Assembly: GCF_007744075.1 (NCBI RefSeq)
Contig: NZ_CP036266.1
Location: 372,001 to 436,000 of the forward strand
Direction: 5' to 3'
Length of the DNA: 64,000 nucleotides
Origin: Gimesia chilikensis
Lineage (GTDB): Bacteria > Planctomycetota > Planctomycetia > Planctomycetales > Planctomycetaceae
The position numbers were made by a program, and so were the translations under genes. Positions 26,902 through 34,455 of the stretch are shown piece after piece (positions within the stretch are counted from its first letter, which is position 1; every line of letters starts with the position of its first letter). The notes below the pieces were generated by a model. It was not told the DNA's origin, did not search any database, and worked only from the letters and a program-made list of their open reading frames with translations.

Positions 26902-28089
26902 TTAATAAAAGCGTTCAGCCCGTTTGACGAGTTGGGGATCCCGATCGCGGATGAGAGTCAGGTATTTTCGGGCCCGGGCGGCGGTAGTGGCGTCGGGACC
27001 GCCGTCCGAGGGATCGGAATAACGGGAAGCGACCAGCAGGTAGCGGATGATGGCCTGGCGGATACCTTTGTAGTCGTACCCTTCGGCATCGTAAAGAGAG
27101 ACGAGTCGATCCATAACGGTCCAGTCCTGCCAGCGCGCGAGGTCGGCAATGACGAGGTCAGCCAGTTCCGGACGATTGAGCAGCATCCGCATGGACTGTC
27201 GCAGGCGTTCGGGGGGAATCTGATAACGTCCCTTACCGTACGTCCACATGAACGAGACCGCTTCGCGGGCAGCGAAGAGTTCGTTGGGCGATGTATTCTT
27301 CTGCTGGAACTTGGAGCGCTCCAGGTGGTCCAGTCCTTCGCTGCCGGTGAGCATCAGGTAGCCGGACATCAAGCCGCCGATGCCCGAGCGGAGCCCTTGT
27401 GCCTGGACGTTGATTTTATCTTCCATGAAGTCGATGTCATCTTCATTTCCGCAGAGTCCCAGCATGAGACCGTATAAGCCGAGGCGAGGCGCGGGCGTCG
27501 ATTTGCTGCTCAGCCAGTGGTGCAGCTTTTCGCGGGGGAGTTGTGGTGTCAGCGGGACGATGTCTTCAAAGGGGGCGTTAGCGAATTCCGCGAAAGCATC
27601 GTTGGCGATGATCATATCCTGATGTTCGAGGAACTTCAGAAAGTACTGCAGCCTTTCGGTGGTCGGTTTCTGCAGCGAGGGCGCCTGCATGACGTACGCA
27701 TAGCTGGCAGGGGTGATGGCTGTCGGGTTTTCCCAGAGGGGCTTGGGTCCGTGAGTTCCGGTGAGCAGGAACGGGCCGCCAGGCTTGCTGAAGTGATAGT
27801 GGTTGACCGTGATCAGCGAACCTTTTTCGTACTGAGTGCCCTGCGACTGTTTAATGACCTTCAATACTTTGAAGACCGTGTGTCCCGGCTTCTCGATGGT
27901 GCCGGTATCGCCTTCGACCCATCGGACCAGACAGGCGGTGTGGGCGTGTGTGAGCTTTTCGGTCAACGGGACAGAGGCCCCGGGGCAGAACGGACAGGCG
28001 GCGAGTTTCGTTGTCAGTACTGTGATCAGCAGGCAGCAGAACAGCCCAGGCCATCCGTGGCAGGGTCGGATTCGATTCCGGTCGGTCAT
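26902..28089 (-). CDS. Secreted CPFC-motif protein, paralogue of next gene
   Basis: 395 residues. A signal peptide (hydrophobic residues 15-30) is followed at once by ACPFCPGASVPLTEKL, a CxxC pair at the mature N-terminus. Then comes an OB- or netrin-like beta region (HTVFKVLKVIKQS ... YEKGSLITVNHY) and a long helical C-terminal half with HEAT-like character. It is clearly homologous over its length to the protein at 28182-29387: shared landmarks are ACPFC, TVFxVxxxI, KGxxIT, RLxYFLKFLE, NDAxAEFANAP, GLYGLMLGLCG, GYLMLTGSxGLD, FMWTYGxGR, LRxSMRxLLxRPEL and DLVxADLARWxDW. It forms the last gene of the minus-strand cluster. No function is known. Confidence 0.8.
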   Translation of the reverse strand: MTDRNRIRPCHGWPGLFCCLLITVLTTKLAACPFCPGASVPLTEKLTHAHTACLVRWVEGDTGTIEKPGHTVFKVLKVIKQSQGTQYEKGSLITVNHYHFSKPGGPFLLTGTHGPKPLWENPTAITPASYAYVMQAPSLQKPTTERLQYFLKFLEHQDMIIANDAFAEFANAPFEDIVPLTPQLPREKLHHWLSSKSTPAPRLGLYGLMLGLCGNEDDIDFMEDKINVQAQGLRSGIGGLMSGYLMLTGSEGLDHLERSKFQQKNTSPNELFAAREAVSFMWTYGKGRYQIPPERLRQSMRMLLNRPELADLVIADLARWQDWTVMDRLVSLYDAEGYDYKGIRQAIIRYLLVASRYSDPSDGGPDATTAARARKYLTLIRDRDPQLVKRAERFY

Positions 28090-28181: not shown

Positions 28182-29387
28182 TTACTTCAGGAAGAAGAAG
28201 CGTTCGGCACTTTTGACGGTCTTGGGATCTTCTTCGCGGAGCTTGGCAAGAAGTTCCTTGGCTTTTTCCGTCGTGGCGGCATCGGGGCCACCGCCATTTT
28301 TGTTTTTCCCTTTGGAGGCGACGAGCAGATAACGCACGATGGCCCGTTTGATGGAGGGAATGTTGTAGTCTTCGGCGCCGTACATTTCCATCAGGCGGTT
28401 CATGACGCTCCAGTCATCCCAGCGAGCGAGGTCCGCGACAACGAGGTCGGTCAGTTCAGGGCGATCGAGGAGCAGTCGCATGGATTTCCGCAGGCGTGCC
28501 TTGTCGATGCGTCCGTCGCCATAGGTCCACATGAAACGCAGAGCCTGCATGGCGGCGTAGGTTTCACTGAAGGCGACATCCTTGGGGACGAACTTGGATT
28601 CGTCGATTTTATCGAGCCCGTCCGATCCGGTGAGCAGCAGGTAGCCGGAGATGACGCCGTCGATCCCCAGGCGGAAGTCTTTGGTGGGTTCATTGATTTT
28701 CTTTTCCATGAACTCCACATCTTCACCCTGGCCACAGAGTCCCATCAGCAGTCCGTAGAGACCGATGCGGGTGACGGGGGTTTCGGGATCGGAGAGCCAC
28801 TTGCGGATTTTTTCGCGGGGCATGTCTTTGGACAGCGTGGCGATATCTTCGTAGGGGGCGTTGGCGAATTCGGCATAGGCGTCGTTCGAGATCATCTGGT
28901 CCGGGAATTCCAGGAACTTCAGGAAGTAACGCAGACGCTTGGATGTTTTTTCTTCCGGCGGTGGTGCCTGGGAGACGTAGTGGTAGCTGGTTTCGGTGAC
29001 TTCGATCGGATCGCCCCAGTCGACTTCTGCGCCCTTGGTGCCCAGCAGCATGAACAGGTTGCCTTTCTTGCCGGGACGATGGCGATTGATGGTGATTTTA
29101 TCGCCGACTTTGAGCTTGTCCTTATCTGACTGGCGGATGATCTCTTTGACTTCGAAGACGGTTTTACCCGCTTTTTCGAGGTCTCCTTTCTCGGCTTCGA
29201 TCCACTGGACGAGCACGGCGACGTCTGACTGAGACAACTGTTCGGTCAGGGTCAGCGAGGGAGCGGAGCAGAAGGGACAGGCCTGGGCCACAGGTACCTG
29301 GGCCAGCAGGATCAGTCCGCAGAGCAATCCCATGACGGTGCGTTGTTTGAGGATGCGATGTTGGAAGAAATTTGTCAGACGATTCAT
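28182..29387 (-). CDS. Secreted CPFC-motif protein, paralogue of previous gene
   Basis: The start is taken as the ATG at 29387, with GAGGT 9 bases upstream; earlier in-frame codons overlap the preceding gene. The 401-residue protein has a signal peptide (residues about 18-35) followed by ACPFCSAPSLTLTEQL. Domain layout as in the neighbour: CxxC at the mature N-terminus, beta-rich region with DKITINRHRPGKKGN, then helical repeats. The two proteins are tandem paralogues. The CxxC could bind a metal or haem-free redox centre, or form a disulfide; nothing in the sequence decides. It lies 64 bp downstream of a CCFG-motif lipoprotein gene. Confidence 0.8.
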   Translation of the reverse strand: MNRLTNFFQHRILKQRTVMGLLCGLILLAQVPVAQACPFCSAPSLTLTEQLSQSDVAVLVQWIEAEKGDLEKAGKTVFEVKEIIRQSDKDKLKVGDKITINRHRPGKKGNLFMLLGTKGAEVDWGDPIEVTETSYHYVSQAPPPEEKTSKRLRYFLKFLEFPDQMISNDAYAEFANAPYEDIATLSKDMPREKIRKWLSDPETPVTRIGLYGLLMGLCGQGEDVEFMEKKINEPTKDFRLGIDGVISGYLLLTGSDGLDKIDESKFVPKDVAFSETYAAMQALRFMWTYGDGRIDKARLRKSMRLLLDRPELTDLVVADLARWDDWSVMNRLMEMYGAEDYNIPSIKRAIVRYLLVASKGKNKNGGGPDAATTEKAKELLAKLREEDPKTVKSAERFFFLK

Positions 29388-29451
29388 GAGCCAGACCTCG
29401 TGGCGGTAGTTAACAATTTTGTAAAACGCGTTTTGTTTCCGTAAACATTTA

Positions 29452-30336
29452 TTATTGATCGATGACGATGGCGTCGTCAATCAAGTAGATCCGCTCCAGT
29501 TCTCCGTCGATGGTTTCAGCCTTGATGTGGAAGACGCCGACCACGTCGAAGGGGCGGTTCAGAATGTAGTCTGTTGTGACGCCGTCCTTGAGGAGTACGG
29601 GGAACAGGTCGTAGATTTTCGGGTTCTTGCCGAAGCAGCAGATCTGGTTGTCCCGGGCGAGGAGGAAATACTCATTGCCGGTCTGCTGGAACGGGGGATA
29701 CATGAAACCGCGAATGCGAATTCGTTTGCCGTTCAGATCCTTCAGCCACTGAGGCATGAGCTCGGGGGCTTCGGGAGTGACCGGTTCCATATTCATGACT
29801 TTGAGCAGGTCGATGTCATCGTAGCTGACCTGCAGGGCATCGTTGGGTGCGACGTGTCGGAAGGATTTGTTTTTGACCAGGATCTTGACTTCCCGCGGTT
29901 CCATTTTCGCCGTCTGCTGCTGTTCCTCTTCCGGAGTGAGTGCCCGGAGGCTCGGATCGGGACGCTGCGCGATCAGGGGGAGGAATTCGTCGGTGGCATC
30001 GACGGCGGCAGTGGTTTCCGTGGGGGCCGGTTTGGCTGTGGTTCCGGTCTCCAGTGGCATCGGTTCAGCCGATTTGACTGCGGAGGTCTGGGTAATGGTT
30101 TCCGGTTCGGGTTCTACCGGCTCCGACTGTTCTGGAACCGTTGCGGCGACCTGTTCGGGCTGGTTGTCAGCGGCGTCTTTCTGCTCGGGGGATTTGGCAT
30201 CGATCTGTTCGCTGTATTGACGGTACTCGGTCTGGTCTGATGAATTGCAGCCGGCTCCCCAGAAGGTGAGGCTGCAGAGGGTGAGGATTATCAGACTGAC
30301 TGGTGAGTATCGGGTGGGATTGTGGTGGGCCTGCAC
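29452..30336 (-). CDS. CCFG-motif lipoprotein, DUF3299-like
   Basis: I chose the GTG at 30336 because CAGGAG lies 9 bases before it; a TTG at 30372 is the upstream alternative. The 294-residue protein has a lipobox (FWGAGC) and then a long low-complexity region rich in Glu, Pro, Thr and Ala (about residues 35-130), probably a periplasmic spacer. The C-terminal ~100 residues contain GKRIRIRGFMYPP, FLLARDNQICCFG and a closing beta region, which resemble in order the DUF3299 pattern (G-basic-x-hydrophobic-x-GF...P ... FLLV ... CxH). The same module occurs in the upstream gene at 30507-31223. DUF3299 proteins accompany ABC transporters for zinc in Vibrio, which fits the ABC genes 4-6 kb upstream. 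Confidence 0.7.
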   Translation of the reverse strand: MQAHHNPTRYSPVSLIILTLCSLTFWGAGCNSSDQTEYRQYSEQIDAKSPEQKDAADNQPEQVAATVPEQSEPVEPEPETITQTSAVKSAEPMPLETGTTAKPAPTETTAAVDATDEFLPLIAQRPDPSLRALTPEEEQQQTAKMEPREVKILVKNKSFRHVAPNDALQVSYDDIDLLKVMNMEPVTPEAPELMPQWLKDLNGKRIRIRGFMYPPFQQTGNEYFLLARDNQICCFGKNPKIYDLFPVLLKDGVTTDYILNRPFDVVGVFHIKAETIDGELERIYLIDDAIVIDQ

Positions 30337-30506
30337 GTGATCAAACTCCTGATGATCGGGTGGTTGCACCAACTTCTGGATAAAGTTGATAATGGCTCAG
30401 ACTGTGAATCAACCTGAGCCATTCAAATTCGTAACGAGGTAATAAACGCGTTGGTCTGGGTCTCCGGTGTTTTCAGGCGGGTGTCTCTGTGTGGTTGTCT
30501 GTTCGT

Positions 30507-31223
30507 TTATCTGTAGGAAGTACGAGCCTGTTCGAAGTGGGTCCCCTTCAGCTGGTAGACCGGACGTAATTCACCGGCCTGGGTCGGGGCTTCTGCGACG
30601 AATTCACCGGCAACGGAAACGAGACCGGAATAGAAGTCGGCCCGATTCTTACCCTGCATTTCGACCAGGATCATATCTTTCACGTCGGGCTGGCCGCCGA
30701 AGCAGCACTGGCCGTTATCTTTAACCAGAATGAAAGACTGCAGGTCTTCGGTCTGGCGTGTGGGGTACATGTAACCTTTGACGAAGACTTTCTGCTTGTC
30801 CATTTTGAGTACGTCGGGATTGACGCTGGTCACGCCATCTTTCTGGACGAATTCTTTGGCCGAAATGTCGGTGGCGAAGTTGATGCGCTGGTAGCCTTCG
30901 GGAACTTCGTGTGCATAGACGAAGGACTGATAGCTGATGCCGGTGCCCAGGAAGAAGGTCGACAGCATGAGGCCGGCACGGGCCACCATTTTGCCGCCCA
31001 GTTCACCGCCAGCCCGGCGGATATTGAACATACTGATCAGCGAGACCACGATACCGAACACGGCCACACCCAGACCGATGATCCCGAACAGGGCGATAAA
31101 GGAGAGCAGCCCCAGTACCAGGCCCACGACAGCAGTCGGGGGAACCGGCTTGTAGGAAAACTCATCCTGACCTTCGAAGGAATTTTGCAGCGAGTGATTG
31201 GAGCCATCAAGAACTTGCGACAT
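30507..31223 (-). CDS. Membrane protein with DUF4190-like helices and CCFG (DUF3299-like) domain
   Basis: 238 residues. Two transmembrane helices (VVGLVLGLLSFIALFGIIGLG and the following GVAVFGIVVSLISMF, about residues 30-70) are followed by NIRRAGGELGGKMVARAGLML with a third hydrophobic segment, the arrangement of DUF4190 proteins. The C-terminal part from about residue 145 carries QKVFVKGYMYP, FILVKDNGQCCFGGQPDVKDM and a final beta region, homologous to the neighbouring lipoprotein. The domain should face the periplasm. The pair of CCFG proteins may cooperate with the histidine-rich ABC transporter upstream. Function is inferred only from context. Confidence 0.75.
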   Translation of the reverse strand: MSQVLDGSNHSLQNSFEGQDEFSYKPVPPTAVVGLVLGLLSFIALFGIIGLGVAVFGIVVSLISMFNIRRAGGELGGKMVARAGLMLSTFFLGTGISYQSFVYAHEVPEGYQRINFATDISAKEFVQKDGVTSVNPDVLKMDKQKVFVKGYMYPTRQTEDLQSFILVKDNGQCCFGGQPDVKDMILVEMQGKNRADFYSGLVSVAGEFVAEAPTQAGELRPVYQLKGTHFEQARTSYR

Positions 31224-31679: not shown

Positions 31680-32282
31680 TCAATGTTCCAGACAGCTGAG
31701 TACTTCGACGCGGTAATCTTCCAGACCTGGTACCGAGAGCCCTCTGACCTTGGCGCCGTCATCCCAGCGGCGGAGAAGCACAGCCGTATGATGGAAGGGC
31801 TGGCTTTCGAACCGTGCCACTTCCTTGTCGCTCATCAGCCCTCCCTGCAGGGCGAAGCTCCTCTGCGAAGCGAGTGACAGGCCATTGAAGTAATCGGGTT
31901 CGACGGTGCAGAGATAGCGCTTGGCGGGGACGTGCAGAAAGATCGGATCGGTAATCGCTCTGCCGAAAAACGGTTCCAACTGACGGGCGCCGACCGTTTC
32001 GTGTTCCCAGTCTTCGGAGAGGAAATCGTCGTGTGCCTCATGCTCGTTCATCAGGAAGTGGCCGATATCGTGCAGCAGGGCAGCGGTGATCTGTTCCATG
32101 CTGGCCTGACTGCTGCGGGCGAGTTGTGCGGCCTGCAGAGCATGTTCCAGTTGCGTGACTGCTTCATCGTAGTAGCTCTGTCCCTGTACCTGCATCAGTT
32201 CGAACAGGCCGTCGACTCGCTGGTCGGGAGTTTTTTCGAGTGAGAGGACATCGTGCAGGGAGATTTCGATTTTTTCTTTCAT
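31680..32282 (-). CDS. phnZ: PhnZ/TmpB-like HD-domain diiron oxygenase
   Basis: 200 residues. The residues that PhnZ uses, as I recall them (Tyr24, Glu27, His34, His58-Asp59, His62, His80, His104, Asp161), map onto Tyr37, Glu40, His47, His71-Asp72, His75 (in HDIGH), His94, His117 and Asp174 with the same or nearly the same spacing. PhnZ is a mixed-valence diiron oxygenase that cleaves the C-P bond of 1-hydroxylated 2-aminoethylphosphonate to glycine and phosphate; TmpB acts on the trimethylated analogue. The start overlaps the stop of the preceding dioxygenase gene by ATGA, matching the PhnY-PhnZ pairing. Substrate choice between the two pathways is not decidable here. Confidence 0.8.
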   Translation of the reverse strand: MKEKIEISLHDVLSLEKTPDQRVDGLFELMQVQGQSYYDEAVTQLEHALQAAQLARSSQASMEQITAALLHDIGHFLMNEHEAHDDFLSEDWEHETVGARQLEPFFGRAITDPIFLHVPAKRYLCTVEPDYFNGLSLASQRSFALQGGLMSDKEVARFESQPFHHTAVLLRRWDDGAKVRGLSVPGLEDYRVEVLSCLEH

Positions 32283-33061
32283 GACCGTTCCACAGGCTTT
32301 CCGTTAAAATGGCCGATCTTACTGATCTGTAGTTTCTCGGCGCTGGTTTGTCCGATTTCCGCTAATGAACGTCGTTTATCTGCGTAGTATGCTTCACGCC
32401 GGTCTCCCTCCGCGAGTGCGTTGTAGGTGAGGTAAAGCGTGCGGCGCGGTTGCTCTGTTTTGTTGGGCGGACTTTTATGGGGAGCGTATGAGCTGAAGAA
32501 CAGGGCATCACCCGGCTGCATGGGCACCGGTTCCCAGTTCAGCGTTAAAGCGAACTCGGGTTCGATGCAGCCGTGTTCATCCAGGTGCAGCAGTCCCTGG
32601 CGATGCAGATCGGGGGCGAAGAACAGGCAGCCGTTTTCCGGAGTGGCCGCGTCGATGGCGATCGAACAGGTGATGTGATTGTGGATGAACTCGTAAGCGG
32701 GGGCATCCTGATGCGGGGCATAGCCGCCTCCGCCCGGATACTTGTAGTTGATCTTTTCTTTGTAGAGGACCGCCGGTTCGCCTATCAGGGAGCCGGCGTA
32801 TTCCGGAATCTTGCCTGTGGTGAGCAGCGATCGGATGCCGGTGTGGAAGTCGAGCAGATACTCGGTGCGGGCGAGACGAATGCCGGCGGGAGTCTGTTCG
32901 AAGTGGTGCATCCACTGGTCATCGCTGGCGGGCCATTCGCTGATTTCCTCGACCCACTCCTGCAGATTCCGGGTTTCATCGGGTGTGAGGAAGCCGGGCA
33001 GTTTGAGGTAACCGGTCTGCTGCCACTGGTCCTGTTGTGCGCGGGTAATGCTGATAGTCAT
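32279..33061 (-). CDS. phnY: PhnY/TmpA-like Fe(II)/2-oxoglutarate dioxygenase
   Basis: 260 residues of the phytanoyl-CoA dioxygenase (PhyH) superfamily. The facial triad is His117-x-Asp119 (APHQDAP) and His195 (YAPHKSPPN), with the 2-oxoglutarate-binding Arg in PRRTLYLTY. PhnY and TmpA hydroxylate the carbon next to phosphorus in 2-aminoethylphosphonate or its trimethyl form, making the substrate for the HD oxygenase. Assignment rests on the overlapping downstream PhnZ-like gene as much as on sequence. Both ends overlap neighbours by 4 bp, so three genes are coupled. Confidence 0.75.
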   Translation of the reverse strand: MTISITRAQQDQWQQTGYLKLPGFLTPDETRNLQEWVEEISEWPASDDQWMHHFEQTPAGIRLARTEYLLDFHTGIRSLLTTGKIPEYAGSLIGEPAVLYKEKINYKYPGGGGYAPHQDAPAYEFIHNHITCSIAIDAATPENGCLFFAPDLHRQGLLHLDEHGCIEPEFALTLNWEPVPMQPGDALFFSSYAPHKSPPNKTEQPRRTLYLTYNALAEGDRREAYYADKRRSLAEIGQTSAEKLQISKIGHFNGKPVERS

Positions 33062-34455
33062 GATACGATGCCTGTATTGGTGCCTAAGCGATTGTCGGTT
33101 TCGAGTTTGAGCTGCGGTGCCGGCGCGGGTTGGCTGACCGACTGTCGCAGGTGGAAGTAACGGATGACGTACAGGGTGCCTGCGATGGAGAGGGGCGAGA
33201 TGATCAACGCCAGCCAGAAGAGCAGGGCGACGAAATCGAGGTTGTTTGCGAATACCAGATTGACGGTGGCCATTAAAATAACGGTGCTGAGATAGCCTGC
33301 GAAATCGCCAAGGTAGAGCAGGTAGCCGACATTGCTCTTATAGCGGAGCATGGCGATGACCCGTTCGTAAATCGTGGTGTGAAAGAGGACATACGGGACG
33401 TAGAGGCTGATGCCGATCAGCACCATGAACTGAAACGCTGCCTGTTCGGTCCAGCTGGTGGTGCCCCAGTAGTAGAGCGTAGTGCCCAGTGCGGTCGCGA
33501 AGCCGATTCCTGTCAGGAGCATGCCTGTGAAAAAGGCGCGATAGTTCGCTCCAATAAAGACGGCAATCGCACTGAGGGCGACGACCACCGCGGCGACCAG
33601 GGTTTCGGACTGCGCGAAGATGGCCGGTTTTTCGATGCCGAACCCGGACCAGATTTCGGCTGCGTAATCGTCGCGGACGCTGCGGAACAGCGTGAGGAGA
33701 ACCATCAGCAGGATCAGCACGGTCAGGCCGCCGGCGTGGTTTCGAAAAAACTGGCGTCGTTCTGCACCATTGAAGGGGGAGCGAACCGCACGAGCCGAGA
33801 TGTCACTTTCTCCGGGGGGCGGGATCTGCTGCAGCATCCAGACACCTACCAGAAGTGGCAGCCAGAACAGGCCGCCTGTGGCGAACGGCATCCAGAATTC
33901 CGACACGCCGTAGTTCTGCATCAGGACCGCACCGACGGTTTTGACGGTACCCGAGGCCATGATGAAGCTGGCACACAGGCCGGCGGCCATGGCTTCGGTG
34001 ACGCGTCTCCCCTCCAGAAATGCGAAGACACATCCAAAGACCATGCCCAGCGGCAGCCCGTTCAGGAACAGAAACAGCGGTTTGAGCCAGTAGGGAGCGA
34101 CGGCGTAGGGGAGCAGCGCCAGATGTGCGATGGCAATCAATGAGAGAATCATGGTAGCGCGGCGGTTGGCGGTCATCTCGGAAATGACCTTGATGCCGAT
34201 CAGTTTGGAGAGAGCGTAGCCGCTGATTTGCGCGAACAGGAGAATGACTTTATAGCCGAGTCCCCAGAAGACGAGGTCTTCATACTGGGCCACCGTAAAC
34301 GGTTTACGGAAGGCGTACATGCAGAAATAAGTCGTAAAGGCAGCGATCACAGACCAGAGGGTCAGAACCCCCTGGTGACTCTGTTCCAGACGCGTCGAGA
34401 TGTACCGTGATCGAAATCGCATGGAGCGTCTTTTCGCGAAGCTGATGTCGGACAA
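33058..34455 (-). CDS. DUF5690-type multi-pass membrane protein, putative phosphonate transporter
   Basis: 465 residues from a TTG start (ATG at 34422 is an alternative). About 12 hydrophobic segments are visible, starting VIAAFTTYFCMYAFRKPFTV and ending ALIISPLSIAGTLYVIRYF; the FRKPF and cytoplasmic basic loops recall major-facilitator proteins, and the pattern fits DUF5690, a family without known substrate as far as I recall. It is the first gene of the three-gene operon and overlaps the dioxygenase by ATGA, so uptake of the phosphonate, or export of its product, is the simplest role. That role is inference from position alone. Confidence 0.7.
   Translation of the reverse strand: MSDISFAKRRSMRFRSRYISTRLEQSHQGVLTLWSVIAAFTTYFCMYAFRKPFTVAQYEDLVFWGLGYKVILLFAQISGYALSKLIGIKVISEMTANRRATMILSLIAIAHLALLPYAVAPYWLKPLFLFLNGLPLGMVFGCVFAFLEGRRVTEAMAAGLCASFIMASGTVKTVGAVLMQNYGVSEFWMPFATGGLFWLPLLVGVWMLQQIPPPGESDISARAVRSPFNGAERRQFFRNHAGGLTVLILLMVLLTLFRSVRDDYAAEIWSGFGIEKPAIFAQSETLVAAVVVALSAIAVFIGANYRAFFTGMLLTGIGFATALGTTLYYWGTTSWTEQAAFQFMVLIGISLYVPYVLFHTTIYERVIAMLRYKSNVGYLLYLGDFAGYLSTVILMATVNLVFANNLDFVALLFWLALIISPLSIAGTLYVIRYFHLRQSVSQPAPAPQLKLETDNRLGTNTGIVS

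What the first reader, a model, noticed from the sequence alone, without database searches (positions are those of the whole stretch)
31680..34455. PhnY/PhnZ-like operon with a DUF5690-type transporter
Three genes overlap by ATGA at both junctions. The HD protein retains the whole PhnZ residue set with matching spacing (Tyr37/Glu40/His47/His71-Asp72/His94/His117/Asp174), and the preceding PhyH-type enzyme has its Fe triad. The first gene is a 12-helix protein of a family with no known substrate. The operon predicts oxidative cleavage of a C-P bond in a planctomycete and a possible new phosphonate permease. PhnZ residues are from memory; the transport role is inference.
Basis: partly seen in the sequence, partly recalled or inferred. 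Interest (0 to 1): 0.75.

Follow-up and report, generated by a model that had tools for sequence, protein, structure and literature searches.

The report
Methylphosphonate operon with candidate phosphonate permease
Two of these genes are the known enzymes that turn methylphosphonate into phosphate and formate, and the uncharacterised membrane protein made with them belongs to a large family found beside phosphonate-degrading genes in several bacterial phyla, so it is probably a missing uptake protein for such compounds.

Summary
The three overlapping genes are real. The enzyme pair is not new: the 260-aa and 200-aa proteins pass the NCBIfam equivalog cut-offs for methylphosphonate (MPn) hydroxylase PhnY and hydroxymethylphosphonate dioxygenase PhnZ1, the Gimesia maris pair, and the HD protein fails TmpB. 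The predicted substrate is therefore MPn, not the AEP proposed for assay. The open question was DUF5690, and the linkage test is strongly positive. In 170 family genomes, 45 of 87 DUF5690 genes lie within 5 kb of a PhnZ-type gene; about 0.08 expected. Of the 80 best loci of a genome scan (several phyla), 62 hold a phosphonate-catabolic gene I accept, 7 a weaker candidate, 11 none. Annotated records read DUF5690-phnX-phnW in Bacteroides and Parabacteroides. The model is a 12-helix MFS fold. Residues that align with GlpT's phosphate-binding R45, Y76, K80 and R269 are invariant in 197 of 197 sequences. Most likely DUF5690 is an MFS phosphonate permease family, here for MPn. Transport, direction, substrate and coupling are inferred; homology to the OPA family is suggested, not shown.

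The parts
33058..34422 (-). DUF5690 (PF18943), 454-aa MFS-fold protein, proposed methylphosphonate permease; ORF as listed runs to a TTG at 34455
   Evidence: R39, Y69, K73, R247 invariant in 197 of 197 relatives
32279..33061 (-). PhnY-type methylphosphonate hydroxylase, 260 aa, Fe(II)/2-oxoglutarate enzyme
   Evidence: NF052437 538 bits, cut-off 500; PhyH E 7.1e-31; H117-x-D119, H195
31680..32282 (-). PhnZ1-type hydroxymethylphosphonate dioxygenase, 200 aa, HD-domain diiron oxygenase
   Evidence: NF052439 407.9 bits, cut-off 300; named residues present; PDB sequence neighbours TmpB and PhnZ
33058..33061 (-). ATGA overlap of the DUF5690 stop and the PhnY start
   Evidence: sequence
32279..32282 (-). 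ATGA overlap of the PhnY stop and the PhnZ1 start
   Evidence: sequence

Best explanation
A three-gene operon for methylphosphonate use. DUF5690 is an MFS permease that takes up MPn (possibly also hydroxymethylphosphonate) through a central site where arginines of the two halves (R39, R247), with K40, Y69 and K73, hold the phosphonate head. PhnY hydroxylates MPn to hydroxymethylphosphonate with Fe(II), 2-oxoglutarate and O2. PhnZ1 oxidises that to formate and phosphate. Across the family DUF5690 serves different phosphonates according to the enzymes it travels with. Shown here: gene identities, overlaps, predicted fold, residue conservation, linkage. From published work on orthologues: the enzyme chemistry. 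Inferred: that DUF5690 transports at all, its direction, substrate and coupling (proton symport, or exchange for phosphate as in GlpT).
For: Equivalog models passed. In the genus 7 of 8 PhnY loci have DUF5690 beside them; the eighth keeps remnants of it. Family: 45 of 87 DUF5690 genes within 5 kb of Phn-HD; co-occurrence 71 genomes, DUF5690 only 11, HD only 14, neither 74 of 170. Of 80 scan loci, 62 with an accepted phosphonate-catabolic gene. ATGA overlap with phosphonoacetate hydrolase PhnA in L071. DUF5690-phnX-phnW in Bacteroides and Parabacteroides, DUF5690-TIGR03364-phnX in Novosphingobium. Six of six Gimesia AEP-type operons examined lack DUF5690 and carry a GlpT-like MFS gene with the enzyme genes, while four loci of other genera have DUF5690 and no such gene. 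Fold and residues. Precedent: AepP, a GlpT-related MFS AEP permease (PMC8316502, passages).
Against: No transport data exist here. 11 of 80 scan loci have no such neighbour and 7 only a below-cut-off one; 11 of 82 family genomes with DUF5690 have no Phn-HD, and in 24 more it is not within 12 kb (some are broken assemblies). PhnY-PhnZ1 pairs also occur without a DUF5690 neighbour: in G380 it is about 5 kb off on the other strand, in G369 none in the 10.5-kb contig. G181 has lost the gene and keeps PhnY and PhnZ1. All eight genus genomes have PF12974 (phosphonate-binding) matches elsewhere, not examined further. Profile comparison with the OPA family is weak and a half-swapped control scores nearly as well. 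A 1:1 exchange for phosphate would give no net phosphorus.
Confidence: 0.72

Rival explanations
1. DUF5690 is an exporter tied to these pathways: it lets out surplus phosphate (or formate) made by phosphonate breakdown, while the phosphonate enters by another route.
For: The GlpT-like residues would bind phosphate itself (PMC4598623, passages). PMC8316502 mentions phosphate export during growth on AEP as nitrogen source (passage). Other PF12974 proteins exist in the genus.
Against: The three annotated operons opened list no other phosphonate transporter within about 7 kb (the plasmid gene table is incomplete, and the Bacteroides one has an MFS gene about 3 kb off). GlpT-like proteins, relatives of a proven AEP importer, take its place in Gimesia AEP operons.
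Confidence: 0.12
2. DUF5690 carries organophosphates more generally (for example phosphate esters), and the link to phosphonates is one side of that.
For: Some loci without phosphonate genes have a PhoD-like phosphatase (L180) or PHP-domain genes (L134, L140 scanned) beside DUF5690.
Against: 62 of 80 scan loci have phosphonate-specific genes.
Confidence: 0.1
3. The operon degrades AEP or its methylated forms.
For: PDB sequence neighbours of the HD protein are TmpB and PhnZ. G. maris PhnZ also cleaves (R)-hydroxy-AEP (PMC10574752, section 11).
Against: PhnY sets the substrate and passes the MPn hydroxylase cut-off; the HD protein fails TmpB (148 of 300 bits) and TIGR03276 (196.4 of 214.6). A separate AEP-type operon lies about 200 kb away in the same genome.
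Confidence: 0.06

Closest known systems
Gimesia maris MPn oxidation pathway, PhnY*/PhnZ1 (Gama et al. 2019; that paper not read, described in PMC6581173 passages and PMC10574752 section 11)
   Same: Both enzymes pass the equivalog cut-offs built on that pair
   Different: The accounts seen here name no transporter; DUF5690 is the addition
AepP, MFS AEP permease of Pseudomonas putida BIRD-1 (PMC8316502, passages)
   Same: MFS protein linked to phosphonate-degrading genes, with GlpT-type phosphate-binding residues
   Different: AepP is recognisably related to GlpT (27.75% identity, as that paper states); DUF5690 finds no PDB chain by sequence profile at E up to 1 and has its own Pfam family
GlpT / SLC37A4, organophosphate:phosphate antiporter (OPA) family
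   Different: Weak profile similarity (probability 34%); many other MFS chains tie in Z
PhnCDE-type ABC importer beside phnY-phnZ in Prochlorococcus MIT9301 (PMC6581173, passages)
   Same: Transport partner of a phnY-phnZ pair for MPn
   Different: ABC system there; a single secondary carrier here

Membership tests
Methylphosphonate hydroxylase PhnY (NF052437) | Score over the curated equivalog cut-off, full length | tested here: met
   538 bits, cut-off 500, residues 1-260 of 260
Methylphosphonate hydroxylase PhnY (NF052437) | Hydroxylation of MPn | not testable with these tools
   needs assay
Hydroxymethylphosphonate dioxygenase PhnZ1 (NF052439) | Score over the curated equivalog cut-off, full length | tested here: met
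   407.9 bits, cut-off 300, profile 1-199 of 199
   all eight residues at the stated positions
TmpB (NF049941) | Score over the curated cut-off | tested here: not met
   148.1 of 300 bits
Phn-HD (TIGR03276) | Score over the curated cut-off | tested here: not met
   196.4 of 214.6 bits
DUF5690 (PF18943) | Score over Pfam's gathering score | tested here: met
   415.9 bits, cut-off 25
MFS superfamily | 12-helix MFS fold | tested here: met
   model pLDDT 90.1, pTM 0.88; top Foldseek and VIA-align matches are MFS chains
OPA family (GlpT, SLC37A4) | Sequence-profile homology | tested here: inconclusive
   hhalign P 4.2e-4, probability 34%; reversed control P 0.17, half-swapped control P 1.4e-3
OPA family (GlpT, SLC37A4) | Phosphate-binding R45, K80, R269 (GlpT numbers) | tested here: inconclusive
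   R39, K73, R247 align with the invariant residues of GlpT-like relatives and are invariant in 197 of 197, but the alignment is low-confidence
OPA family (GlpT, SLC37A4) | Exchange of organophosphate for phosphate | not testable with these tools
   needs transport assay

The most novel reading that the evidence does not exclude
DUF5690 is a separate MFS family, thousands of proteins strong, whose job is phosphonate uptake: a main phosphonate carrier of Planctomycetota, Bacteroidota (gut Bacteroides included) and Verrucomicrobiota, with a GlpT-like two-arginine site, serving MPn, AEP, N-methyl-AEP or phosphonoacetate according to lineage.
Probability: 0.6. Interest if true: 0.75.

Novelty: new variant of a known kind. 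Interest (0 to 1): 0.62.

Why it matters
It would give a function to a protein family with no mention in the library searched (4876 matches at E up to 0.001 among 7997 scored) and name an entry step for phosphonates in phyla that carry phosphonate enzymes. MPn routing bears on the marine methane budget: the oxidative route makes formate instead of methane (PMC6581173, abstract), and no PhnJ of C-P lyase was found in the eight genus genomes searched. Gut Bacteroides with DUF5690-phnX-phnW make the idea testable in a commensal genus.

Tried and rejected

Dropped or weak rows. In one search my ORF picker missed the DUF5690 gene in four loci (L052, L053, L063, L069) and the PhnZ gene in two (L083, L089); these are not used in neighbour statements. 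It also missed a PhnX gene in L076, found by tblastn. The cut-offs were applied as E-values that I worked out from the bit cut-offs; PhnZ was counted at E 1e-55, looser than the TIGR03276 cut-off. Those scans give totals, so which members failed was inferred from BLAST scores (PhnX in L112, L115, L116, L157, L168; PhnZ in L158). PhnW (4 loci) and PhnA (2 loci) were called by BLAST; of these only the L133 PhnW was itself scanned, and L117 and L127 are accepted on PhnW and PhnA alone. PHP-domain genes were scanned in L134 and L140 only; L154 and L169 join them by BLAST cluster. Phylum labels were typed from record titles. The 80 loci are the best 80 of at least 566 relatives, not a random sample. 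The Fisher test is not corrected for phylogeny. The chance figure assumes a 6.7-Mb genome.

Full report
What is there. Three minus-strand genes in the order DUF5690, phyH-type, HD, with four-base ATGA overlaps at both junctions. The one change is the likely start of DUF5690, ATG at 34422 rather than TTG at 34455. The window lies in an 8.29-Mb single-contig genome; the named ones among its closest DUF5690 relatives are Gimesia.

The enzymes are known. The 260-aa protein scores 538 bits on NF052437, methylphosphonate hydroxylase (cut-off 500). The 200-aa protein scores 407.9 on NF052439, hydroxymethylphosphonate dioxygenase PhnZ1 (cut-off 300), and misses TmpB (148.1 of 300) and TIGR03276 (196.4 of 214.6). 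PMC6581173 (passages) and PMC10574752 (section 11) report that the G. maris pair converts MPn through hydroxymethylphosphonate to formate and phosphate. PhnJ of C-P lyase was not found in the eight genus genomes searched. A second, AEP-type gene set with matches to PhnW, PhnX, PhnZ, TIGR03364 and TIGR03366 proteins lies about 200 kb away.

DUF5690 in the genus. Of 170 family genomes 8 have a PhnY over the cut-off, all in this genus. Seven carry DUF5690 about 0.9 kb from the PhnZ match on the same strand. The eighth, G181, has only pieces from both end regions of the gene in the gap of about 0.4 kb.

DUF5690 in the family. It is in 82 of 170 genomes, Phn-HD in 85, both in 71 (odds ratio 34, not corrected for phylogeny). 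Of 87 DUF5690 places 45 lie within 5 kb of a Phn-HD gene and 47 within 12 kb; random placement would give about 0.08 within 5 kb. The layouts differ: same strand with genes between, or divergent. In a phylum-wide draw 23 of 294 genomes have DUF5690; comparing places by eye, 6 of the 23 have a PhnZ match beside it.

DUF5690 beyond Planctomycetota. The 80 best loci of a genome scan fall in Planctomycetota (48), Bacteroidota (18), Verrucomicrobiota (9), Pseudomonadota (2), Acidobacteriota (1) and two unnamed. At least one accepted TIGR03364, PhnX, PhnZ, PhnW or PhnA gene is present in 35, 9, 8, 0, 1 and 2 of these, 55 in all; of 14 loci with only a TIGR03366 candidate 7 pass that cut-off; 11 have none. 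Family checks: TIGR03366 32 of 50 candidates, TIGR03364 38 of 38, PhnX TIGR01422 27 of 32 with 5 matching PhnX-like TIGR03351, TIGR03276 34 of 35 at E 1e-55. In 32 of 80 loci DUF5690 overlaps or nearly touches such a gene on the same strand (below-cut-off TIGR03366 candidates are included and some overlaps reflect over-long ORF starts). In the plasmid collection 4 records match; the three opened read DUF5690-TIGR03364-phnX (Novosphingobium) and DUF5690-phnX-phnW (Bacteroides finegoldii, Parabacteroides distasonis), as annotated by others. In L071 DUF5690 overlaps by four bases a phosphonoacetate hydrolase PhnA over its cut-off. TIGR03364-type PbfD enzymes oxidise N-methyl-AEP and AEP, one of them from the planctomycete Mariniblastus fucicola (PMC10590968, passages).

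A telling exchange. In six of six Gimesia AEP-type loci examined (L076, L079, L080, L082, L090, L091) a GlpT-like MFS gene stands with PhnW, PhnX, PhnZ, TIGR03364- and TIGR03366-type genes, and DUF5690 is absent; in L057, L059, L062 and L064 of other genera DUF5690 stands with PhnX, TIGR03364- and TIGR03366-type genes (PhnZ too in three of four, PhnW in none) and the GlpT-like gene is absent. The GlpT-like protein scores 194 bits on TIGR00881 (below cut-off) and E 1.8e-31 on GlpT 1pw4. AepP, a GlpT-related MFS protein, is a genetically shown AEP permease (PMC8316502, passages).

Coupling. A strict 1:1 exchange for phosphate would bring no net phosphorus. Either DUF5690 is a symporter, or the pathway serves another need, as AepP serves nitrogen supply. 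This is open.

Print record. No paper in the library holds 'DUF5690'. Searches on phosphonate with MFS, major facilitator, permease and related words listed no title or abstract start that ties this family to phosphonates. The library lacks most subscription papers, the Gama paper included.

Verdict. The enzymes are ordinary new members of a known pathway. The permease assignment is well supported by linkage, moderately by residues, and untested by experiment.

Noticed in passing
G000:C1:195000-212000 (locus L076, outside the window): AEP-type phosphonate gene set with a GlpT-like MFS gene in the place where other genera have DUF5690.
   Followed up: partly
L075 10400-10900 (genome G181): DUF5690 reduced to remnants beside intact PhnY and PhnZ1 frames, so this genome keeps the enzymes without the carrier.
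   Followed up: partly
L134, L140, L154, L169: In four Bacteroidota loci a gene of one cluster of about 290 aa lies just upstream of DUF5690, overlapping it by 8 bases in three; the two scanned have a PHP domain. A possible phosphonate or phosphoester enzyme.
   Followed up: no
window 29452-30372 and 30507-31223, minus strand; L078 4112-7592: Two genes downstream of the operon (one a weak DUF3299 match) have relatives beside a PhnZ-type gene in another genus (G274), so this stretch of synteny may be old.
   Followed up: no
L192 6555-8637 (genome G522): A DUF5690 63% identical to the window's, beside a PhnZ1-like gene with no PhnY match in the locus; it might serve hydroxymethylphosphonate directly.
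   Followed up: partly
window 26902-28089 and 28182-29480, minus strand: Two neighbouring proteins of similar sequence, a likely tandem duplication of unknown function.
   Followed up: no
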